NCBI GenBank assembly: GCA_905147135.1
Contig: LR990060.1
Span: forward strand, 4,170,001-4,234,000
DNA: 64,000 bases
Source: Blastobasis lacticolella
Lineage: Eukaryota > Arthropoda > Insecta > Lepidoptera > Blastobasidae
Reading direction: 5' to 3'
Shown: positions 1-51,410 of the stretch, piece after piece
Position numbering within the stretch: position 1 is the stretch's first letter
How the letters are laid out: each line of letters starts with the position of its first letter
The notes under the pieces: generated by a model
Seen by the model: only the letters and a program-made list of their open reading frames with translations
The model's database searches: none
What the model was told of the DNA's origin: nothing
Made by a program: the position numbers and the translations under genes

Positions 1-1808
1 ATGTAGTCTTATATCCTGACAGACAGACAGACAGCTGAAGCTGAGATTTAGTTCGGCTTTGCAATACCATAATGTAATCTCGTAGGCCAGTAATCACAAA
101 TAGAGATGCCATCATGTTTAGAATCGGATTCGGTTTTGTTTTGTAACCGGCTGATGTGAGGACTCCACATTCATCCAGTGGGATCTAATAAGATACTCTA
201 CATGGTCATAATACTATATTGTACTATTCCTAAATTATTTAATTTTAATTACTAATTAAAATCATTCGTTGGTGTGCATGTATATTATATCTCTTACCTG
301 TTGAGTGTTGAGTGGTGAGTGTTATTGACCTACATTAGGGTTGATTTCTGTACGTAAATAAAGTAGTAAGTATAAAATATAGTAATAAAGTAGTTGGTTG
401 AATAGTTTAAGTATCTTTCGCGACGGCATCTTTTTCAATTTTCATTATTTATTTAAAGTACTCTTCTTGATTTTTAAATGAAGTGCTGCATCATCAAAAT
501 TAACAAGACGTAACAATTAGATTTGAGGCTTCTTTACTTCAGTGGAGAGTTTTTCGTAATATCTAGGCTTATCTTGTTTTATAAAAAATATATATATTAA
601 AATTGTTTATAACACCTATCTTACACATGGCACATTGCATTTGGGTAAAATACACAGCAATAAATTGCAATCCATGACAGTAGACAAGAAGCATTGAGAA
701 ATAGACAATGCAATCGTTACTTCGTTGCCTATGCCATAAGGAGACGTGTAACAGGGTGTGACCCTGTTACACAGCAATAGATCTCAGTGTTAACGACACC
801 TTAACGACACCGCACAGAAAACAGAAAATATTTTTTTTAATGTTACACAGTGACAAACAAGCAGAAGCCCATCTGATGGTATGCTATAACTGCCCATAAC
901 ATCTATGATTTATGCATTTAGTTCTCAGGTAAAAAAAGGTTAATAAAAGCTCTTCTTCTATTTCAATATGTGATATTGAAAAGGTCTCATTCACTTTCGG
1001 TTTCGGCTCGGGACTGAAATCCACTCTCTATTATAGCAAAGAGCATCCTCATTGTTGCCAGATTACTCTGAATAATTTGTTCTGGACTGACGTTGAGGTA
1101 GGCCCGTAAATTGGGGTTTATTTGTTCGGAACTGGCAACTCCGGTTTAGTATAGTTTTGTTATTCAGTTAGAGTATAGTTTTTGAAGTATAGTTTCGTGA
1201 AATTTTTTGGGAGGGTATTATAAGAACTTTGTTTATTAGATTTAAAATTATCATTATGCTAGCGACCCGCTCCGGCTTCGCATCGGTTTTCTTGGTAATG
1301 GTGAAAACTGCATCAAAATCCGTTGCTTGGTTTAGGAGGCGTTAACGGATGTATAGACTGACAGACGCGCAACAAAAGACTAAGTAATAAGGATTTTTTA
1401 TTTATTTGTTTATTACATACATATAATTTTTTTTTCATATAATTTTATGTTTAAGTTGTAAAGAGACTCTGGCAGAAACCGGGATTGAATGCTTGGATAA
1501 TTATTTATTTGTACGTTTTTACTCTCGTGGGTGCGGAACGCACAAGACCGCCAATATTTCCTAACTAGCTACTGACCTGTTTCTATGAAATAATGATAAA
1601 AAACCTCTCGATTCAACAAACTTCCAAATAAAAGAAACCGTATTCATATCAGTTTTATTTATTTATTTAAACTTCATGCAATGTTACGTACAATAACGGA
1701 CTTAAAGCATTATAGCTTTCTCTGCCAGTCAACCGGAGAGTTGTCAGTATGAAAAATTACAGGGCGGTGCTGGATTATTGACACAAATATTGGTGAACAC
1801 ATTAACTC
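1..1808. other. Gene-free stretch with faint repeat traces
   Basis: I see no supported coding region. At about 841-905 there is the GTGACAAACAAGCAG...CCCATCTGATGG motif, which is the inverted 3' end of the R5 repeat found elsewhere in the window. At about 1259-1400 the segment beginning GCTAGCGACCCGCTCCGGCT resembles, in reverse, the lepidopteran repeat class ending in GAAGCCGGGGCGG...CTAG (compare 52240-52436). The rest is AT-rich and unassigned. Confidence 0.5.
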
Positions 1809-4870: not shown

Positions 4871-7051
4871 CTATTCCGAATAGTTATCATCAAAATCAGA
4901 CTCGTCTTCATCCATATCTTCCGAAGTATCTTCGTTCAAAGAGTCATTGTCTGTATCGTATGCTACTTTCTCTCTATCTTCTGAAACAGCCCCATCTGAG
5001 GAGTCATTTGGCCACTCATCTCCGTCGATACTCGGTGAATCATCTTCTATATCTTCCGATGATGATTCATCCTCTACATCTTCGTCCGAAGCATCGCCAG
5101 CATCGTCCGAAGAGTCATTGCTTTGCGATTCGTCTTCGTTTGTGTCGGATGCTTCCTCCTCTATATCTTCCGAAGCAGCATCTTCCGAAGATTCATTGTT
5201 TAGCGACCCGTCTTGATCTGTGTCAGAAGTATCTACTTCGGATGCTTCGTCCTCTACATCGTCGCCCGAAGCATCGCCAGAATCGTCTGAAGAGGCATTG
5301 CTTTGCGATTCGTCTTCGTTTGTGTTGGATGCTTCCTCCTCTATATCTTCCGAAGCAGCATCATCCGAAGATTCATTGCTTAGCGACTCGTCTTGATCTG
5401 TGTCAGAAGTATCTACTTCGGATGCTTCGTCCTCTACATCGTCGCCCGAAGCATCGCCAGAATCGTCCGAAGAGTCATTGCTTTGCGACTCGTCTTCGTT
5501 TGTATCAGATACTTCCTCCTCTATATCTTCCGAAACCGCCTGACCCAATGAGTAATGATTTAACGAACCTTGTTCGATTGTATCAGTATCAGAAGCATCA
5601 TAGTTTGACAAACTGCTTTCTTCCTTTTTTCTTACTTTCGCTATGCCGTCGAAAGCAGTCTCATCCCAATAGTTACCATCGAAGTCATCGCCAAAACTTT
5701 TTTTATTTTCCTTTATATCTTTAGAAACATCTTCAGCTTCGTATAAAGACTCAATATTTCTTGTAGTGTTTTTATTTCGGCTCGAACCCGTAAGAGCGAG
5801 AATACTGTAAGTGGTAACGTCTAAGTCCTGTAGTCCAAGCTCATCATGGTGTGTAGTAACATGGGTATCATGCAATATGGCTTTGATAGAGGAATGGTAT
5901 TTCTCAGATTGAATTAAATCCATATTAAGGCGATTCTTCAGGTTCTTCTGCATATGTCTCCTCGGCCTAGACGGAGTCACCACCAGTGGTACTTTCTCTC
6001 GTTTCGAATTGACTACTTTGTTCTTAGAGATGTAAGAATATTTTTGGATTTGTGGATCTGCTGTGATCTTCAGTTGTACAGTTTTTCGTTTGCTTGATAT
6101 TTTAAAAGATTTTGACATATTTAAAATTATTTTTCCAATTTTATTTTTTTTAGTCACTTTGTTTTTCATACATTTAATCATTATTATAATTACTAAGACA
6201 TTTATTACCCAAAATAACCCACTATGAAATTTATACAAACAGTAATACAATACAAGTAAGTAAATAATAAGTACACAAATTCTTAAATCGTAGTAACTTT
6301 TGATAAGATAAGGTTTCTTTTTCTTAGTATTATAATTTATAATATTAAAAATAAGTTTAATTACGCAAACCACACAGCGACAGCATACAATTAAGAAATA
6401 GTAACAATAATATAAAAAGTATAAGAAAAGAGTATAACATTTATGAAAGTAGTAGTAGTATTTACTATATTGATCTTTGCATTTAGATTTTATATTCGTC
6501 TTTGCGGTATGAACGTCAGCAACTTTACGTTTGGAGTCTTTTTGTGATCCATCTATCTTTATCTTTGCAGTTTTCTTTGTTTTAATTACATTATTTGTCA
6601 TCGTGTCACGTTTTTGGTATTTACGGTTGCTCGAAAAGTTTGCTTCAGTTTTTGCAGTTTTTGTAACTTTTACGTTTTTTCTTCTCAATAAAGAGCTCAT
6701 ATTCGGTTCATTTCCTTCTATATACACTAGTTTGAATAATAAGTTGCTAGGAGTTTCCGGATGTTCCTTTGCCCTGTGCTTCTCTGCATAGTTTTCCGAA
6801 CCAAAATATGTATCACAGAACGAGCATACATATATCATTAAATAAGACTTTTTTTCATGCAAAATGTATTTCTGCGTTTTATCTCCTGCGCCAAAAAAAT
6901 CTTTACTCTTCTCCTCTCTGCTATCTGCTCCAATATGCCGTTTACTGTCATCTCGGAAAAAGCCTTTTCTAGTTCTACTATTATCCCTGGAACCCAATTT
7001 TTCATCCTGACGTATATGGTCAAATGATCGATTCGATTTCTGTCGTCGCAT
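4871..7051 (-). CDS. C2H2 zinc-finger protein with acidic Ser/Asp/Glu repeat tail, function unknown
   Basis: A 726-residue open frame. Residues 1-70 are charged and basic. A single C2H2 finger is visible (Cys76, Cys79, His92, His97; C-X2-C-X12-H-X4-H). Residues ~125-192 are Lys-rich. Residues ~194-312 are unusual: very rich in Tyr, Ile, Leu, Val and Cys, with two long hydrophobic blocks. They could be membrane segments, but the DNA (about 6115-6470) is AT-rich and looks intron-like. A possible in-phase intron runs from GTAAAT at 6465 to a CACAG acceptor ending at 6061 (405 nt), which would give a 591-residue product. The C-terminal ~220 residues are strongly acidic and contain 60-residue repeats. 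Short basic plus long acidic regions fit a nuclear or chromatin-associated protein, but I do not recognise the family. A TTTATAAATA motif lies at 7077-7086, about 30 bases before the first Met, so an internal Met could be the true start. R3 abuts the 3' end. Confidence 0.6.
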   Translation of the reverse strand: MRRQKSNRSFDHIRQDEKLGSRDNSRTRKGFFRDDSKRHIGADSREEKSKDFFGAGDKTQKYILHEKKSYLMIYVCSFCDTYFGSENYAEKHRAKEHPETPSNLLFKLVYIEGNEPNMSSLLRRKNVKVTKTAKTEANFSSNRKYQKRDTMTNNVIKTKKTAKIKIDGSQKDSKRKVADVHTAKTNIKSKCKDQYSKYYYYFHKCYTLFLYFLYYCYYFLIVCCRCVVCVIKLIFNIINYNTKKKKPYLIKSYYDLRICVLIIYLLVLYYCLYKFHSGLFWVINVLVIIIMIKCMKNKVTKKNKIGKIILNMSKSFKISSKRKTVQLKITADPQIQKYSYISKNKVVNSKREKVPLVVTPSRPRRHMQKNLKNRLNMDLIQSEKYHSSIKAILHDTHVTTHHDELGLQDLDVTTYSILALTGSSRNKNTTRNIESLYEAEDVSKDIKENKKSFGDDFDGNYWDETAFDGIAKVRKKEESSLSNYDASDTDTIEQGSLNHYSLGQAVSEDIEEEVSDTNEDESQSNDSSDDSGDASGDDVEDEASEVDTSDTDQDESLSNESSDDAASEDIEEEASNTNEDESQSNASSDDSGDASGDDVEDEASEVDTSDTDQDGSLNNESSEDAASEDIEEEASDTNEDESQSNDSSDDAGDASDEDVEDESSSEDIEDDSPSIDGDEWPNDSSDGAVSEDREKVAYDTDNDSLNEDTSEDMDEDESDFDDNYSE
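5030..5575 (-). repeat. 180-bp in-frame tandem repeat in the acidic tail
   Basis: The CTATATCTTCCGAA motif recurs at about 5161, 5341 and 5521, exactly 180 bases apart. In protein terms each unit is 60 residues, beginning SEDIEEE, continuing TNEDESQSN and VEDEASEVDTSDTDQD, and ending ESS-D-A. There are about three copies; the one nearest the stop is shorter and diverged. The period is a multiple of three, so copy-number change keeps the frame open. This points to selection on the frame or recent expansion. Confidence 0.85.
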
Positions 7052-16860: not shown

Positions 16861-16862
16861 CT

Positions 16863-17070
16863 TAAGGCCCTGACACAAACAAAGCTCGGCGCGAGCGTGG
16901 CGCGAGCGCGGTGCGATAGTTGCCTAGGCAACGCGCCAGCATCGCGCCGCGCTCAGGCCGCGCTCACGCCGCGCTCAGGCCGCGCTCAGGCCGGCGTGAG
17001 CGCGGCGCCGCGCCTGCGCTGTGCAGTGCCACAAACTTATCAGACCTGGTACCGGCGGCGCTGTTTTTAG
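16863..17070. mobile_element. GC-rich palindromic element with a perfect X-box (copy 1)
   Basis: Begins AAGGCCCTGACACAAACAAA and GCTCGGCGCGAGCG, then a CpG-dense array of GCGCGAGCGCGG, CAGGCCGCGCTCA-type motifs. The perfect palindrome GTTGCCTAGGCAAC lies at 16919-16932. The second copy (23756-23968) ends with the inverted form of the same terminus (CTTTGTGTGTGGCAAGGCCT), which suggests terminal inverted repeats. The island is far more GC-rich than the surrounding DNA. Open frames across it on several frames are composition artefacts. Confidence 0.65.
16919..16932. promoter_or_regulatory. Perfect X-box palindrome (RFX-type site)
   Basis: GTTGCCTAGGCAAC fits the established RFX consensus GTNRCC(0-3N)RGYAAC on both half-sites. 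The identical site recurs at 23890-23903 in the related element. Binding is inferred, not shown. Confidence 0.5.
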
Positions 17071-17429
17071 GATTGACATGTCAGTTCAAATACATTTCAA
17101 AAGTAAGTGTCGATATTTTTCCGCAGTTCCAGTTTTGGCCACCGCGTTTCTATGACAATCGGCACACATAGAGTGGCTGCTCCATTATTCGGGGAATTGA
17201 ATTTTTAGGATGGTAATACTCCCACATGTCGTAATAGCGGGTTAATTACTCGTTTCTTTTTACCAACAGTCCGAATCTTTCCTCCTAATTTGACTGGTGC
17301 ATTACGCAGATAATTTAGAACCTGAGGACGAATTTAGGCTTACTTTTTATTCCCCTCTACTCGCTAGCTTGCAAGAGTATATATAAGGTAGGTAAAAACC
17401 TGAAGCTTGGAAAAGTAAGCCCTACCTCT

Positions 17430-17510
17430 GAAATAAGTCGCCTTTTACGACACCTCTTAGTGTGGACGGCGATGCTATTTTACTCTGTTGGACACCACAC
17501 TGCAAATTTT
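17430..17510 (-). mobile_element. R3 5' end fragment, reverse
   Basis: AAGTCGCCTTTTACGACACC, GGCGATGCTATTTTACTCTG and TTGGACACCACAC are a diverged complement of the R3 5' end. Confidence 0.55.
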
Positions 17511-17892
17511 GCTCCCTAGGTAGGCCCCCTAAGGTAGGTAGGATGAAGGGGCACAGCTCTCCTACATCAGAATCAAAACATTTCAGTCCGACTTATTTGT
17601 CGAGTTAGACAAACTTTTAATGATACCGTAACATAGAGCACAAATTCTACAGTGCAAAAATTCGGTGGCTAGAGTCTAACGCTGATATAGATGTTTTGTT
17701 TAAGTACCCGCTACAGTACACAGAAAATTGCGCTCAATCTTATCCACCAGAATGGTACAAAACACATTGATATCAAATTACATTTCTTTCGACAATCTTT
17801 CGGCCTGCCAGATGATAAGTAGTAATAGATGGTAATATAATAAGAAATGGTTTATGGTATGCAAGTATTGCCATAATATTTACATTTCAATT

Positions 17893-18475
17893 TCTGGAGA
17901 GCCTCAGTGGCCGAGCGGTTAGGGTATTTGACTAATAAGCGAGAGGTACCAGGTTCGAATCCCGCTGCGGCCATGTACCAATGATGCTCTTACGGTGAGG
18001 GAAAACATCGTGATGAAACCTGCACATACACCTGAGTGGTTCAATGGTTAACATGCCGGTCTGCCACGCAAGAGGTCCCGGGTTCGATTCCCGGCCGGGC
18101 AGAAATTGAAATAATGAATATTAATTTCTGTTACGGGTCTGGGTGTTCTATGTATAATAAATATGTATTTAAAAAGTATTTAAGTAGTTTATCACTTATC
18201 TAGCACCCATAACACAAGCTTTACTTTGGGGCTAGATGGCGCTGTGTGAATTTGTCCACGAATATTTATTTATTTAATTTATACAGGCGACTGAATGTGT
18301 AACCATGATCCAATCTGGTCAGAGTCCCCTTGTAGCAGGGTCACGAAGGTCAGATGGCAGTAGCTCCACTGTAATTACCTGATCTGCGAAAACATGGATC
18401 ATGGTCAAGGCGGATCCCAGGCCTTCGGGCGCAAAAGCACAATCGGGACATTAACGCCAAGGTGATTATGATTTT
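17893..18475 (+). mobile_element. SINE-B interrupted by SINE-A
   Basis: The SINE-B head (CAGTGGCCGAGCGGTTAGGG, GGTTCGAATCCCGCTGC) and first body part run to CCTGCACATA at about 18029. A complete SINE-A follows, and the SINE-B body resumes at about 18284 with CAGGCGACTGAATGTGTAAC. It then runs to GACATTAACGCCAAGGTGAT, the (GAT)-type end. Other copies read CCTGCACATTCAGGCGACTG without a break, which proves the nesting order. Confidence 0.9.
18030..18283 (+). mobile_element. Complete SINE-A (tRNA-Gly-derived)
   Basis: The clearest SINE-A. The head reads TGGTTCAATGG (A box), CTGCCACGC across the anticodon loop (GCC, as in tRNA-Gly) and GGTTCGATTCCC (B box) with a CCCGG/CCGGG T-stem. The body contains TACGGGTCTGGGTGTTCTAT, GTAGTTTATCACTTATCTAG and GGGGCTAGATGGCGCTGTGT, then TTTATTTATTTAATTTAT. 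Internal pol III promoter boxes are intact. Confidence 0.9.
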
Positions 18476-18489
18476 TTTATTAAGATTTC

Positions 18490-19836
18490 AATTTCGCTTT
18501 TTTTTTTTATGTTACTTAGCAGACAAACAGGCAAGCGGGCCACCTGATGGAAAGTGGTCACCGCCGCCTATGGACATCAGCAACACCAGGGGAGTCACCA
18601 ATGCGTTGCCCGCCTCTAAAGAGACCTCTAATATACCTCTTGAACGATCCCATGTCATAGTCCAAAGGAAACACTGTGGCTGGGAGCTCATTCCACATCC
18701 GAATCGTACGAGCGAGAAACGTTCTTTCGAACCTTCGCGTGGTGACCAACAGAGGGTCTACGTAGTGGGGATGAGTACCCAGCCCACGGCGGGTGGTGCG
18801 ATGGCGGAATTGTGCTGTGGGCACCAGATCGAAAAGTTCCTCGGAACACTCCCCATTGTACAGCCGATAGAACACACACAGGGAGCCAAAGTCCCTTCGG
18901 TTAGCCAGTGGTTCTAACTTGCTTGTTTGTATGGGATCGTCGACAATTCGTACGGCGCGTCTCTGTACGGAGTCCAAAGGATTAAGCAGGTCGGCAGTTT
19001 CGCCGGCCCAAAGATGGGAACAATACTCCATATGAGGCCGCACCTGTGCCTTGTACAGCAGCAGGCGCTGCCCTGGGGTGAAGTATCGCCTGGACCGGTT
19101 AAGCACGCCAAGCTTTTTCGAAGCCAGTTTGGCCTTACCTTCTAGGTGACTCCGGAAGCGCACGTTATCCGATATGTCGACACCAAGGATCCCGATACTT
19201 TTTGAGATGGAAAGGGGTGTCCCTTGGAACTTCGGCACATTGACAAAGGGATCCTTTTTGGCGGAAAATGCGCAGACCTGTGTCTTTGAAGGGTTGAATT
19301 CCACTAGGTTCAGTCTGCCCCAGTGAGCAACTTGCTCCAAGGAGTGTTCAATCTCTGACACAAGTCTTATTCGGCTTTCCGACACCACGGAACGAGGGAT
19401 ATTCGTACGGCCAGTATAACAAGCATCTCCAGTACTGTCATCTGCATAGCAATGAATACTGGGAATATTCAGCATATCATTGATATGCAGAAGAAACAGC
19501 GTGGGAGATAGCACTGAACCTTGGGGTACTCCAGAATTAATGGTCTTGGTATCGGAGCAGCATCCGTCGACAACGACTTGGATGCTCCGTCCAGACAGAA
19601 AGCTGGATACCCAATTGCAGAGCCCCTCGGGGATACCGTACTTCGGGAGTTTTGTTAGCAGTGCCCAGACCCGATCAAATGCCTTGGCTATATCAAGACC
19701 GACAGCCAGAGCCTCCCCCTTGCTCTCGACAGCCTCAGCCCACCGGTGTGTTAGGTACACAAGAAGGTCACCAGCTGAGCGACCATGACGAAAGCCATAT
19801 TGACGGTCACTGATCAGCTGGCGATCCTCGAGTAAT
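18490..19836 (-). mobile_element. 5'-truncated Jockey-type LINE
   Basis: The element's 3' end is at the left (a T-run near 18502-18510, i.e. the A tail). It carries a 400-codon reverse transcriptase remnant and is cut at the 5' side at about 19836, next to a Helitron. Related shorter copies are at 44985, 49413 and 56022. The endonuclease and the first half of the polymerase are missing. Confidence 0.85.
18558..19760 (-). pseudogene. Non-LTR reverse transcriptase fragment (Jockey-like)
   Basis: The frame is open for 400 codons from an internal Met and stays open upstream to about 19833 (ISDRQYGFRHGRSAGDLL-like). Reverse transcriptase motifs in order: GLDIAKAFDRVW (catalytic Asp), SGVPQGSVLSPTLFLLHIND, HCYADDSTGD (the YADD site), and further on the LGVDIS and LLLYKAQVRPHMEYCSHLW motifs. 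The C-terminal part is complete to the stop. No frameshifts are seen, so the truncation is fairly recent, but without the N-terminus it cannot be functional. Confidence 0.85.
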
Positions 19837-19837
19837 A

Positions 19838-20051
19838 TCTTTATATATATAATTCTTCTGTGAGTGTGTATGTCACTGAACTTCTCTCAAACGACTGGAC
19901 CGATTTTGATGAAATTTTTTGTGTGTGTTCAAGGGGATCTGGGAATGGTTTAGATTCACAATTTTGTCAGAATATTTTAGCTTATTAAAAAAAGTTTGAA
20001 ATTTTCAAATTAAAGACGTGTAGACAGGACAACGTCTGTCGGGTCCGCTAG
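19838..20051 (+). mobile_element. Second non-autonomous Helitron
   Basis: Starts TCTTTATATATATAATTC after an A and ends GTCCGCTAG before a T. A terminal hairpin is formed by GACAG and CTGTC around GACAACGT, about ten bases before CTAG. The ACTTCTCTCAAACGACTGGA motif is a sequence I associate with lepidopteran repeats. It sits exactly at the truncated edge of the Jockey-type LINE. Confidence 0.7.
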
Positions 20052-20807
20052 TTCAGTATAAAATAGACGAACAATTGCCCAAAGCTTACTTCATGGCCAT
20101 GGATCGTAGTTCTTCTTCTTCGTGTACAATTGACTTACCGCCGTACAGAATCAAATTCGACTTTTTTCTAACAGATTTATCGCTAGCGGCTGAACCGGGA
20201 TTTGTCGCTAGAATAGTCCCCGCGGGCTTAAGTAACCCACTCTTACGTATTTGTGTCTTTGACATTTGTCAAAACGCACTTGCCAGGTGAAATTATTAAA
20301 TATTTACGGTAGAATTTTTTTGGAGTTTTTTAAATATTTATGGTAGAATTTTTTTGTAATTTATATATTTATATTTTAGTGCGTGCCTCAACCTGAGGCT
20401 GCCTCTAATTCGTACGCAATTCCGATAAGCAGCAACCAAAAACAGCAATGGAGTATCTTTTTTATGTAAAGTATAATAAACATCATGTATTATTTGTAAA
20501 ACTTATGTTTTTAGCATTTGCAATAAATATTTCAGTGTTTATTGCAAAAAAAAAACGGCCATAATTAGTTGGTATCTTCAATCAAATTCAATGCACTCCA
20601 TCTGATTGTTTTTGATTTGGCCGTCTTACATGCATGCGCACGATGTAACTTTGCACTGGCGGTATAACACCGTGGATTTAGTTCTGACTATTAAATGTGG
20701 GTAGAACAGAAAAAAATACTTATTACTGTAATATGTATAGTACAGCATAAACCGGAACGGACTAATATTTGGAACAAGCGCCATAGTTACTTTTGTTCAG
20801 CTTGAAA

Positions 20808-22183
20808 ATAGCTATCCAACGACGTATTACACATCTCTTGGGACCCATCTCGGGGTGTATAGTGGTGTAATATATGGATATGTTATGAACTATCTGTATG
20901 GCTCCATTTTTATGTATGCATTCTGCATTTATTATTTTATAGGCTCCACTTATTGTATATGCACAAGATTAGCTCATGTGGGTTGGTTGTGTAAGTAAAA
21001 GACATGTACAGAGGTGTATCTGCGTGGTGCTGTGTGGCGGTTGCTCGTTGGGCCCACCCAATGAGCAGCCGTCGCACGGTATTCATGCTTGTGTGTTGCA
21101 CCGTTGTATACCTTGGGACCCGTCCCGGGGTGTATAGTGGTGTAATATATGGGTATGTTATGAACTATCTGTATGGCTCCATTTGTTATGTATGCATTCT
21201 GCATTTATTATTTTATAGGCTCCACTTATTGTATATGCACAAGATTAGCTCATGTGGGTTGGTTGTGTAAGTAAAAGACATGTACAGAGGTGTATCTGCG
21301 TGGTGCTGTGTGGCGGTTGCTCGTTGGGCCCACCCAATGAGCAGCCGTCGCACGGTATTCATGCTTGTGTGTTGCACCGTTGTATACCTTGGGACCCGTC
21401 CCGGGGTGTATAGTGGTGTAATATATGGGTATGTTATGAACTATCTGTATGGCTCCATTTGTTATGTATGCATTCTGCATTTATTATTTTATAGGCTCCA
21501 CTTATTGTATATGCACAAGATTAGCTCATGTGGGTTGGTTGTGTAAGTAAAAGACATGTACAGAGGTGTATCTGCGTGGTGCTGTGTGGCGGTTGCTCGT
21601 TGGGCCCACCCAATGAGCAGCCGTTGCACGGTATTCATGCTTGTGTGTTGCACCGTTGTATACCTTGGGACCCGTCCCGGGGTGTATAGTGGTGTAATAT
21701 ATGGGTATGTAATGATCTATCTGTATGGCTCTATTTATTATTATATATGCTCAAGACTAGCTCATATGGGTTGCTTGTGTGAGTTAAAGACATTCACAGA
21801 TTTGTACCTATGCAGTGCTGTGTGCCGGTTGCTCGTTGGGTCCACCCAATGAGCAACCGTCGCACGGTATTCATGATCATGTGTTGCACCGTTGTATACC
21901 TTGGGACCCGTCCCGGGGTGTATAGTGGTGTAGTATATGAGTATGTAATGAACTATCTGTATGGCTCCACTTATTGTGTATGCACAGGATTACAAGTTGG
22001 TTGTGTAAGTAAAACTAAGTGATGAATTTGTTAACCAGTTGTAAGCGTTATCCGGATGGTATTACGAGAGAAACACCATTGCCAACAAACTGTTATGCAG
22101 TTTGGCAGGGTAACTATAAGTAAGACAGAATGTACGAAATATTGTAAGGATTAATAAATAAATAAATAAATAAACATAGCTAT
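20808..22183 (+). mobile_element. Insertion with 276-bp tandem array and (AATA)n tail
   Basis: ATAGCTAT occurs at 20808-20815 and again at 22176-22183, directly after an (AATA)n tail, so this looks like one retroposed unit with an 8-bp target duplication. The inside is a tandem array: units start at about 21000 and 21276 (exactly 276 bp, almost identical), then about 21552, which shifts into a diverged unit at about 21780. A partial unit lies at 20821-20999. Every unit carries a hairpin (see separate entry) and the motif CTTGGGACCCGTCCCGGGGT. Short open frames on both strands repeat with the array and look like by-products. I do not recognise the family. Confidence 0.7.
21042..21067. repeat. 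Hairpin motif repeated in every array unit
   Basis: TGCTCGTTGGG and CCCAATGAGCA form 11-bp arms with one G:T pair around a CCCA loop. The motif recurs at +276 and +552. In the diverged fourth unit (about 21827-21857) the arms are longer (GTTGCTCGTTGGG with CCCAATGAGCAAC). The single mismatch would be a G-U pair in RNA. Confidence 0.65.
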
Positions 22184-23755
22184 TGGAATGGTTACCACTG
22201 TCCATACAAATTCTTGTACGCGTTAACAATGTTATATCTGGCGGCTAGACAAGATTGTTGACAAACCTATTCGATCCGGTGGCCAAAACCGGAACTAAGT
22301 GTTGCCGTTTTGAAATGTTATGTCAATGCCAACAACAGCGATGCTGTTACCCGGTCAGACATTTTTGTGGCACTGTAGACGGCGCTGTTTTATTGACTAC
22401 GGTAACCGTCAGAGTTATTTGTTCGTTCAACCGCATCAAGATGTATAGCTCTATGGGTGCTAGTGTCAGCAAGAGCAGTATAGTAGGACCACGCTAAGAC
22501 AGAATCGCTTTAAAAAAAAAAATTTCTGTATGGCAACTAATGCTATGTCTTTTATCCGTCATAGAACGTCATTCATAAAAGTCATAACAAATAATTTGAC
22601 AGACTTGAAAAATATTGTTGAGGCGATTGGCACATTGGAGCGCAGCGTTCATTCTGGCGAAATTTGGAAATATGTATAATTTTTATATTGTTTTATATAC
22701 AATAAAAAATTTAGGAATTCTCCAAATTGTTATAACCTTTTCATAAATTTATATTATTTAGGCGAAAATAATTTGAGAACTGAGTAACGGAATACCTATT
22801 TGACAATCCTGGAGACCTCACTTCACAGCAGCGGCCTATTTGACGCCTTTTTATGTGGAAAGTACAGCGCCAAAAACTTATCTGACCCGCAGCCCGTGTC
22901 AAATGTTGCAAAGAAAAAAAACTACGGATCCGCACGAACGCGCGTGGATGTGTTGTCAGTGTGTTCGTCTATGAGTAATTTCCATAGAAACCGATGACAG
23001 CTCAAATAACTTTATGTCACGCACTAACGCACCTCACGCACAACTGTACGGTGCTGCGTTCCAGTGTGCGGATCGCCTAAATAATAATGGACAATGACTG
23101 ACAAGGACAGATTATCCAATAGATATTGCCATATCCACATTTTATATTTTCTACCACTGTCAGTTGATTCGGACTAATCGTGGTCCTATTATAGTAGGTA
23201 AATGTACTTGGAACCCACAATCATCCGCGAAACCGTCGGGTTTAGATTATGTTTATTTATGTACCTTGGCCCAAAGCCTGAGATAGCCTAAACAATTCAC
23301 CATTACAATTTTTTCGTCGCTAATTTTAATCTCGAATACCCCAAATGGCGATAAATAGCGTACATTGGCAACACTTTGTTGGCGCGACGCCGGCAGTACC
23401 GGACTAAGTCCATCAGAGGCCCGGGGCGGACAACCTTTATAAGGCCCCCAGTTTAAGAAGTTTGATGTAATTTTACAAGCTTTTTATTCAGTTCACATTT
23501 GTATGTTTAAGTGTTTTTTATTTATTTAGTTAAAATTACTTCTTTGGCGGAGGGGGTCCTCGACCCTGATCTTAATTCTGTTTGAATAGTGATACGGCGA
23601 TAGCTACGCCCCTGTCACAACTCCGAACCACCTCTTCGATATGTTCTAAGCATATTTTAAAGCCTTGTATAGGATTTTATCAAGGCAACTTGGAGACGTT
23701 TGGAGGCCCCCCTGGACCAGAGGCCCGGGGCAGGCCGCCTTTCCCGCTTTGTTCG
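22184..23755. other. No convincing gene; old repeats
   Basis: 22290-22400 (AACTAAGTGTTGCCGTTTTG, AACAACAGCGATGCTG) is a distant relative of the repeat pair at 27505-27600 and 48640-48712. 23400-23440 and 23700-23745 share AGAGGCCCGGGGC. The open frames here are short and show no domains. Confidence 0.4.
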
Positions 23756-23968
23756 TTAGTCCACCCCTGGCGGCGCGGTGCCGGCGTGGCGTGAGCTCGG
23801 CGCGAGCGCGGTGCGATATTTGCTAGGCAACGACAGCGCGGCGCGATAGTTGCTAGGCAACGACAGCGCGGCGCGAGCGCGGTGCGATCGTTGCCTAGGC
23901 AACGCGCCAGCATCGCGCCGCGCCCGAGCCGCGCTCGCGCCAAGCTTTGTGTGTGGCAAGGCCTTTAC
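23756..23968. mobile_element. GC-rich palindromic element with X-box (copy 2)
   Basis: CpG-dense. A 30-bp tandem doublet (GCTAGGCAACGACAGCGCGG at about 23822 and 23852) is followed by the perfect palindrome GTTGCCTAGGCAAC at 23890-23903. It ends CGCTCGCGCCAAGCTTTGTG and TGTGGCAAGGCCT, the inverse of the copy-1 start. Each doublet unit carries a half X-box (AGGCAAC), giving three site-like motifs in 90 bases. Confidence 0.65.
23890..23903. promoter_or_regulatory. Perfect X-box palindrome (copy 2)
   Basis: GTTGCCTAGGCAAC, identical to 16919-16932, in the same local context (CGGTGCGAT before, GCGCCAGCATCGCGCCG after). Confidence 0.5.
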
Positions 23969-34504: not shown

Positions 34505-34952
34505 AGAAAATGAAAATGAAAATGAAAATGAAAATGAAAATGAAAATGAAAATGAAAATGAAAATGAAAATGAAAATGAAAATGAAAATGAAAATGAAAA
34601 TGAAAATGAAAATGAAAATGAAAATGAAAATGAAAATGAAAATGAAAATGAAAATGAAAATGAAAATGAAAATGAAAATGAAAATGAAAATGAAAATGAA
34701 AATGAAAATGAAAATGAAAATGAAAATGAAATGAAAATGAAAATGAAAATGAAATTGAGAATGAGAACGAGAACGAGAACGAGAACGAGAACGAGAACGA
34801 GAACGAGAACGAGAACGAGAACGAGAACGAGAACGAGAACGAGAACGAGAACGAGAACGAGAACGAGAACGAGAACGAGAACGAGAACGAGAACGAGAAC
34901 GAAAACGAGAACGAAAACGAAAACGAACACGAAAACGAAAATGAAAATGAAA
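34505..34952 (+). repeat. Compound hexanucleotide microsatellite (AAAATG)n(GAGAAC)n
   Basis: About 40 units of AAAATG (to ~34750, one slip at ~34730) pass through ATTGAGAATGAG into about 25 units of GAGAAC (34762-34906), then decay through AAAACG-type units. Six-base periodicity keeps frames open on both strands, giving dipeptide-repeat frames that I do not call as genes. It grew from the GATGATGAG tail of a LINE. Confidence 0.95.
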
Positions 34953-34974
34953 AAGTATTTATTGAATTAGGATT

Positions 34975-50673: not shown

Positions 50674-51410
50674 TCTTGAGTCCGCTAATTTACTACGTTT
50701 CGATCGAAATATAATAAAAACGGCAGTTTTAATTGTGCCGGATACCAAAAACGCGTAAATCTGCCATTGAGCTGAAATTCAATTAAGCCATTAGTACCTA
50801 ACAGTAGCACAATACCAAAAACGCGTAAATCTGCCATTGAGCTGCGATTCAATTGAGCCATTAGTACTTAACAGTAGCAGAATACCAAAAACGCGTAAAT
50901 CTGCCATTGAGCTGCGATTCAATTGAGCCATTAGTACCTAACAGTAGCAGAATACCAAAAACGCGTAAATCTGCCATTGAGCTGCGATTCAATTGAGCCA
51001 TTAGTACTTAACAGTAGCAGAATACCAAAAACGCGTAAATCTGCCATTGAGCTGCGATTCAATTGAGCCATTAGTACTTAACAGTAGCAGAATACCAAAA
51101 ACGCGTAAATCTGCCATTGAGCTGCGATTCAATTGAGCCATTAGTACTTAACAGTAGCAGAATACCAAAAACGCGTAAATCTGCCATTGAGCTGCGATTC
51201 AATTGAGCCATTAGTACTTAACAGTAGCAGAATACCAAAAACGCGCATATCTGCCATTGAGCTGCGATTCAATTGAGCCATTAGTACCTAACAGTAGCAG
51301 AATACCAAAAACGCGTAAATCTGCCATTGAGCTGCGATTCAATTGAGCCATTAGTACCTAACAGTAGCAGAATACCAAAAACGTGTCAAACTATAATTGA
51401 GCTGCGATTG
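50674..51410 (+). mobile_element. MITE-6-related element with expanded interior
   Basis: Begins TCTTGAGTCCGCTAATTTAC, the MITE-6 terminus (one base altered). It continues AAAACGGCAGTTTTAATTGT, as in the MITE-6 interior, and then enters the 70-bp array. The right terminus is missing: sequence after 51410 (TGTTCCGGAAATTTATCTTG) is unrelated. Confidence 0.7.
50741..51410 (+). repeat. 70-bp minisatellite, about 9.6 units
   Basis: ATACCAAAAACGCG recurs at exactly 70-base steps (50741, 50811, 50881 ... 51371). The unit is AATACCAAAAACGCGTAAAT, CTGCCATTGAGCTGCGATTC, AATTGAGCCATTAGTAC(T/C)TA, ACAGTAGCAG. Inner units are almost identical; first and last are the most diverged, as expected for unequal exchange. 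The T/C change at the 58th position alternates among units. Confidence 0.95.

What the first reader, a model, noticed from the sequence alone, without database searches (positions are those of the whole stretch)
20808..22183. Retroposed unit carrying a 276-bp tandem array with a repeated hairpin
An 8-bp duplication (ATAGCTAT) and an (AATA)n tail delimit the whole array, so the tandem repeats either were copied as part of one RNA or expanded after insertion. Each unit has the same G-U-compatible hairpin (TGCTCGTTGGG/CCCAATGAGCA), and in the diverged unit the stem is longer. I do not recognise the family.
Basis: partly seen in the sequence, partly recalled or inferred. Interest (0 to 1): 0.75.

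Follow-up and report, generated by a model that had tools for sequence, protein, structure and literature searches.

The report
Tandem-hairpin tail of a moth LINE
The repeats are the tail (3' untranslated region) of an ordinary kind of jumping gene, a LINE, in what looks like a moth or butterfly genome; a broken copy landed inside a second kind of jumping gene, which then carried it around the genome while the number of repeats changed.

Summary
The array, AATA tail and 8-bp duplication are real, but this is not a new tandem retroposon. The window copy is a 5'-truncated piece of the 3' UTR of a LINE. In an independent copy (L047) the array directly follows two open frames of 311 and 998 codons; the second has endonuclease and reverse transcriptase. 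Its 3' UTR reads c276-d233-e276-f236-g115-tail-(AATA)n after two partial blocks.

Of 40 loci read, 34 share both flanks: passengers of one 7.1-kb DNA transposon (window 16865-23964), with TTA/TAA duplications at 6 of 6 copies whose ends were read. They descend from one LINE insertion. Six loci are independent.

Units carry two long hairpins. H2 of unit e has 35 pairs, 13 of them G-U, no mismatch (sense -47.6, antisense -12.6 kcal/mol). Compensatory change is not above shuffles. No ribozyme family reached threshold. Hairpin function is unproven. LINE copy number was not obtained: the genome search was answered only.

The parts
16865..23964 (.). carrier DNA transposon, about 7.1 kb, inverted ends of about 54 bp (85% alike), TTA duplications at 16862-16864 and 23965-23967; PIF/Harbinger-like, no transposase seen
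20808..20815 (+). target-site duplication ATAGCTAT, left copy
20816..20836 (+). 21-nt filler between duplication and LINE sequence, origin unknown
20837..22175 (+). 5'-truncated LINE copy: 3' UTR array, tail and AATA repeat
20837..21111 (+). unit 1, 275 nt, chimera: starts like LINE unit c, continues like unit e
21112..21387 (+). unit 2, type e, 276 nt
21388..21663 (+). unit 3, type e, 276 nt
21664..21899 (+). unit 4, type f, 236 nt (the diverged unit)
21900..22014 (+). unit 5, type g, 115 nt, partial
22015..22175 (+). LINE 3' tail region ending in (AATA)n; 22015-22150 not unusually structured (z -0.56)
22176..22183 (+). target-site duplication ATAGCTAT, right copy
21022..21088 (+). hairpin H1 in unit 1 (further copies 21298-21364, 21574-21640, 21809-21875)
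21084..21157 (+). hairpin H2 across a unit boundary (further copies 21360-21433, 21636-21709, 21872-21945)
18561..19886 (-). open frame of 442 codons of another LINE reverse transcriptase (window match 24% alike to this LINE) nested in the same carrier

Best explanation
The array is the 3' UTR of a recently active two-ORF LINE, probably of the CR1/L2 lineage of the Jockey superfamily. A segment reaching from the end of ORF2 through two hairpins was tandemly duplicated in the LINE itself, giving a 3' UTR of roughly 1.5 kb made of five units (c to g) and two partial blocks before a short 3' end and an AATA tail. A transcript was copied by target-primed reverse transcription into a PIF/Harbinger-like DNA transposon, stopped early (5' truncation) and was flanked by an 8-bp duplication. 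The DNA transposon then multiplied and carried the piece to at least 34 places, while exchange between near-identical units changed unit number. Shown: identity of the array with the LINE 3' UTR, shared carrier flanks, truncation, unit-number change, strong sense-strand folds. Inferred: reverse transcription as the route, unequal exchange as the cause of unit change, origin of the unit from a segment spanning the ORF2 stop codon, recent activity (from near-identity of copies and open frames), and any role of the hairpins, of which structure used in the LINE's own RNA-protein particle is my first guess (about 0.3).
For: L047 carries open frames of 311 and 998 codons and then the array, tail and AATA repeat on one strand. 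The second matches RVT_1 at 2e-33 and Exo_endo_phos_2 at 3e-7; the first matches Baculo_FP_2nd at 5e-19 and, below its cut-off, a C1-type zinc domain. Among named hits of ORF2 (120 of 188 listed), Plutella, Cydia, Bombyx and Amyelois proteins reach 42-55% identity. Three independent loci keep c-d-e-f-g in that order. Five independent copies break off at different 5' points while all six share the 3' end. 34 of 40 loci share both flanks and 6 of 40 share neither. Carrier ends have TTA or TAA duplications at 6 of 6 copies whose ends were read. Unit counts in the 34 carriers: 27 with two e-type units, 2 with one, 1 with three, 1 with four, 3 with the LINE order c-d-e-f-g.
Against: Only one LINE copy with both frames was read, and its 5' end was not fixed. 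Duplications at the independent loci are weak: 7-nt candidates at 3 of 5 examined, one of them 20 nt off the breakpoint, and none of 6 nt or more at 2. The empty carrier site was not searched. LINE clade rests on ORF1 and ORF2 features, not on a tree; the PHD-like reading of ORF1 is mine, Pfam gave only a sub-threshold C1 match. The ORF2-end similarity that suggests the origin of the unit is not significant taken alone (score 31 and 33, best of 300 shuffles 34). The loci came from the 40 scored of 266 candidates of one search, so more distant copies are under-represented.
Confidence: 0.93

Rival explanations
1. A stand-alone non-autonomous tandem retroposon, such as a metazoan retrozyme: a self-cleaving RNA circularises and is copied into tandem repeats by another element's reverse transcriptase.
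For: Unit size 276, tandem arrangement and target duplication resemble the description in PMC7229834 (passages seen); one unit folds compactly (z -6.7).
Against: Array is joined to LINE ORF2 in L047, L048 and L050; fixed order of non-identical units; no ribozyme family among matches up to E 5 in window 20600-22400 and up to E 1 in the L047 3' UTR; no CTGANGA core in either strand of the array.
Confidence: 0.03
2. The two hairpins are functional RNA parts of the LINE, kept by selection on the sense RNA, for example as repeated binding sites in the LINE RNA-protein particle.
For: H2 of unit e: 22 Watson-Crick and 13 G-U pairs, no mismatch over 35 pairs; H1 of unit e: 23 plus 8 with one bulge; antisense folds much weaker. 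If transitions alone had eroded a perfect palindrome, G-U and A-C would be equally likely, so 13 of 13 G-U has chance 1.2e-4 (my arithmetic, a simple model). Of 21 H2 sites folded in the window, L047, L048 and L050, 19 form 32-35 pairs; the exceptions are the truncated first one of the window (24) and one of L050 (31).
Against: Covariation not above shuffles: H1 315 of 500, H2 121 of 500 as high. In passenger copies, expected to be neutral, private stem changes keep pairing at 11 of 17 (11 of 16 without the partial unit g), so retained pairing is no proof of selection. Other unit types have A-C or other mismatches in H2. The stretch is rich in G and T, which favours G-U pairs.
Confidence: 0.3
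3. The hairpins arose as inverted duplications and their G-U richness comes from A-to-I editing of the double-stranded LINE RNA, fixed at each round of reverse transcription, without selection.
For: Pattern is sense-specific as editing of the LINE RNA would give; 8 of 13 G-U pairs in H2 have T 5' of the G, a neighbour I recall as favoured by ADAR.
Against: Some differences between unit variants are C/T, not A/G, and also keep pairing (columns 7, 19 and 42 of alignment A2); T before G is common in this sequence anyway; no RNA data.
Confidence: 0.25
4. The array is satellite DNA that expanded by itself in the genome.
For: Unit number varies among near-identical carriers.
Against: No array longer than four e-type units among the 40 loci read; all 40 have the LINE tail on their 3' side. 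Loci beyond the scored candidates were not seen.
Confidence: 0.02

Closest known systems
CR1/L2-lineage LINEs of the Jockey superfamily (ORF1 types described in PMC4120745, passages seen)
   Same: ORF1 with an N-terminal cysteine/histidine cluster that I read as PHD-like (Pfam: only a sub-threshold C1 match), ORF2 with endonuclease and reverse transcriptase, 5' truncation
   Different: Long 3' UTR built of tandem two-hairpin units; AATA tail. Lepidopteran CR1 elements described in two papers differ: BmCR1B has one ORF, a 53-bp 3' UTR and poly(A) (PMC1925062, passages); Zenon is listed at about 3.1-3.7 kb and has a poly(A) end (PMC6740152, Results part 1 of 2).
Chicken CR1 / HinfI (SCR1) tandem repeat
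   Same: Tandem repeat from CR1 3' UTR plus part of ORF2, as listed in the table of PMC9659126 (passage seen)
   Different: That table lists it as satellite DNA; here the array is part of the LINE and moves with it. Sequences were not compared.
HeT-A 3' non-coding region and dolphin L1 3' UTR satellites
   Same: LINE 3' region as source of tandem repeats (PMC9659126, passages seen)
   Different: No comparison of sequence or hairpins made here
Metazoan retrozymes
   Same: Tandem units of a few hundred bp (PMC7229834, passages)
   Different: No hammerhead found; linked to LINE ORFs
PIF/Harbinger non-autonomous transposons (features recalled, from no call)
   Same: TTA/TAA 3-bp duplications and inverted ends
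   Different: 7.1 kb long and filled with other elements; transposase not identified

Membership tests
LINE (non-LTR retrotransposon) | ORF2 with AP-type endonuclease and reverse transcriptase upstream on the same strand | tested here: met
   (locus L047)
LINE (non-LTR retrotransposon) | common 3' end, variable 5' truncation | tested here: met
   6 of 6 independent loci share the 3' end; 5 with a located 5' breakpoint all differ, the sixth (L047) reaches beyond ORF1
LINE (non-LTR retrotransposon) | target-site duplication at independent insertions | tested here: inconclusive
   8 bp at the carrier insertion; 7-nt candidates at 3 of 5 others, none at 2
CR1/L2 lineage | position in reverse transcriptase tree | not tested
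   no labelled reference set of clades at hand; ORF1 features only
Metazoan retrozyme | type I hammerhead ribozyme in each unit | tested here: not met
PIF/Harbinger carrier | 3-bp TTA/TAA (TWA) target duplication (recalled) | tested here: met
   6 of 6 copies whose ends were read
PIF/Harbinger carrier | terminal inverted repeats | tested here: met
   54 bp at 85%
PIF/Harbinger carrier | DDE transposase of the superfamily | not tested
   three open frames of 110 codons or more listed, none compared with transposase families; the longest is a reverse transcriptase

The most novel reading that the evidence does not exclude
The LINE multiplies a sense-strand RNA module of two 31-35 bp G-U-rich hairpins in its 3' UTR because more copies help it, for example by binding its own ORF1 protein or by shielding its RNA from silencing, and a DNA transposon has become a second vehicle for the module.
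Probability: 0.2. Interest if true: 0.65.

Novelty: new variant of a known kind. Interest (0 to 1): 0.35.

Why it matters
It explains an odd tandem retroposon by known parts, and gives a clean natural case: one LINE insertion copied to at least 34 sites by a DNA transposon, with unit number changing from one to four among carriers whose aligned flanks are mostly 98-100% identical. That is a record of how LINE-borne tandem repeats expand and shrink. If the hairpins matter, they would be an unusual repeated RNA module in a LINE 3' UTR.

Tried and rejected
Retrozyme or other self-cleaving RNA: rejected (9 and 10 matches, none near its family's gathering score, most of them microRNA models). Filler as an inverted piece of the LINE: not above shuffles (177 of 300). 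Structured 3' tail: not above shuffles (z -0.56). Compensatory evolution: not above shuffles; the stems do pair far better than the same columns slid by 1-3 (H1 96% against 34-49%, H2 97.5% against 30-57%), which shows the fold, not selection. The 14-nt-longer hairpin of units a/c looks like a palindrome-forming insertion rather than pair-by-pair change (inference). Viral contigs: no relative of ORF2 confirmed. Solved structures: five matches, L1 ORF2, R2 proteins and one other reverse transcriptase. Papers: the listings (20 of 47 shown; 20 of 35; 10 of 209; 4 of 4; 6 of 6; 6 of 6; 5 of 21) showed, by title and start of abstract, no lepidopteran LINE with a tandem hairpin 3' UTR; that is not proof of absence.

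Full report
What is there. The window is G000:C21:4170001-4234000 of a 577-Mb genome in 45 contigs. Named ORF2 relatives are, with one exception (a leafhopper), from moths and butterflies (120 of 188 listed), so I take the host to be lepidopteran (inference). The array runs from 20837 to 22014 and is followed by a 3' end and an AATA repeat up to 22175; ATAGCTAT lies at 20808-20815 and 22176-22183. Between the left duplication and the array are 21 nt of unknown origin.

Copies. A genome search with the whole stretch scored 40 of 266 candidates. I read 40 loci, L001-L040. In 34 of 40 both flanks are the same and in 6 neither is. The shared region ends at inverted repeats AGGCC...GGCCT; TTA or TAA is duplicated at 6 of 6 copies whose ends were read, and sequence outside differs. 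This is a 7.1-kb PIF/Harbinger-like transposon (family features recalled), window 16865-23964, itself full of other elements, among them a reverse-transcriptase frame on the other strand. So most copies are one retroposition event multiplied as DNA. A later search with one 276-nt unit scored 40 of 147 candidates, reported 187 matches, not all listed, and showed three further places not read, on C9, C14 and C27.

The LINE. In three of the six independent loci the sequence upstream of the array is the end of a LINE ORF2 (L047, L048, L050, the longer reads of L007, L008, L037). L047 holds open frames of 311 and 998 codons (start codons not settled), then the array. Pfam: RVT_1 (2e-33) and Exo_endo_phos_2 (3e-7) in ORF2; Baculo_FP-type domains in ORF1, with a C1 match below its cut-off that I read as a PHD-like zinc cluster. 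PMC4120745 (passages) reports PHD-bearing ORF1s in the CR1 and L2 lineages; clade membership was not tested by a tree. PMC1925062 (passages) and PMC6740152 (outline, and part 1 of 2 of the Results) describe lepidopteran CR1 elements with poly(A) ends; BmCR1B has one ORF and a 53-bp 3' UTR.

Array history. In L047 the units read c276-d233-e276-f236-g115-tail, after two partial blocks next to ORF2. L006, L007 and L008 keep this order. L036 lacks d, L038 is truncated, L037 has a variant order. Of 34 carriers, 3 (L003-L005) keep c-d-e-f-g; 27 have two e-type units before f; 2 have one; L001, the window copy, has three; L002 has four. The first unit of the common carrier form is a c/e chimera. The order in the independent LINE copies shows that the array was in the RNA; the carrier differences show change after insertion, most simply by unequal exchange (inference). 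The unit segment next to H1 resembles the last codons of ORF2 (22 and 24 matching bases for units e and f, collinear with the hairpin), which suggests duplication of a segment spanning the stop codon; the ORF2 part alone scores 31 and 33, below the best of 300 shuffles, 34.

Hairpins. One unit folds at -116.1 kcal/mol against -83.4 for shuffles (z -6.7). H1 gives z -9.6, H2 z -7.3. In H2 of unit e all 35 pairs form, 13 of them G-U; the antisense strand folds at only -12.6. Several other H2 variants have one or two mismatches, some of them A-C. This is what RNA-level maintenance would look like, but G+T-rich composition and A-to-I editing are open alternatives. Covariation is absent: H1, 12 sequences, 315 of 500 shuffles as high; H2, 15 of 25 variants used, 121 of 500 shuffles as high, one double change in 35 pairs. 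In carriers 11 of 17 private stem changes keep pairing (private means seen in at most two copies; L003-L005, the six independent loci and unit classes with fewer than 10 copies were dropped, pairs were taken within one unit read as a circle, and one of the 17 lies in the partial unit g, where that pairing does not apply), so retained pairing is not evidence of selection.

Ribozyme. Rfam at E 5 (window 20600-22400) and E 1 (L047 3' UTR) gave 9 and 10 matches, all far below gathering scores, mostly microRNA models; the hammerhead core CTGANGA is absent from both strands of the array. The defining feature of metazoan retrozymes as described in PMC7229834 (passages) is therefore not met.

Verdict. 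An ordinary LINE piece with an uncommon 3' UTR, nested in and spread by a DNA transposon. Identity is well supported; hairpin function is open. The number of LINE copies in the genome, the empty site and relatives in other species at the DNA level were not obtained, because the genome search was answered only.

Noticed in passing
window 34506-34953: Long hexanucleotide arrays, GAAAAT about 43 copies followed by GAGAAC about 30 copies.
   Followed up: no
window 50742-51409: 70-bp tandem repeat, 9.5 copies, 96% matches.
   Followed up: no
window 5061-5534: 180-bp tandem repeat, 2.6 copies, 93% matches.
   Followed up: no
window 17890-18110: Two stretches that look like tRNA-type promoter boxes (GGTTCGAATCCC and GGTTCGATTCCC), possibly SINE heads, inside the carrier transposon; seen by eye only.
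   Followed up: no
window 16894-16970 and 23788-23941: G+C-rich repeated blocks near both ends of the carrier.
   Followed up: partly
L047 about 1190-1340 (reverse complement): Common dispersed repeat, also three times in the window, upstream of the LINE frames; the true 5' end of the LINE was not fixed.
   Followed up: partly
L035: A carrier copy with an insertion of about 500 bp inside the LINE tail.
   Followed up: no
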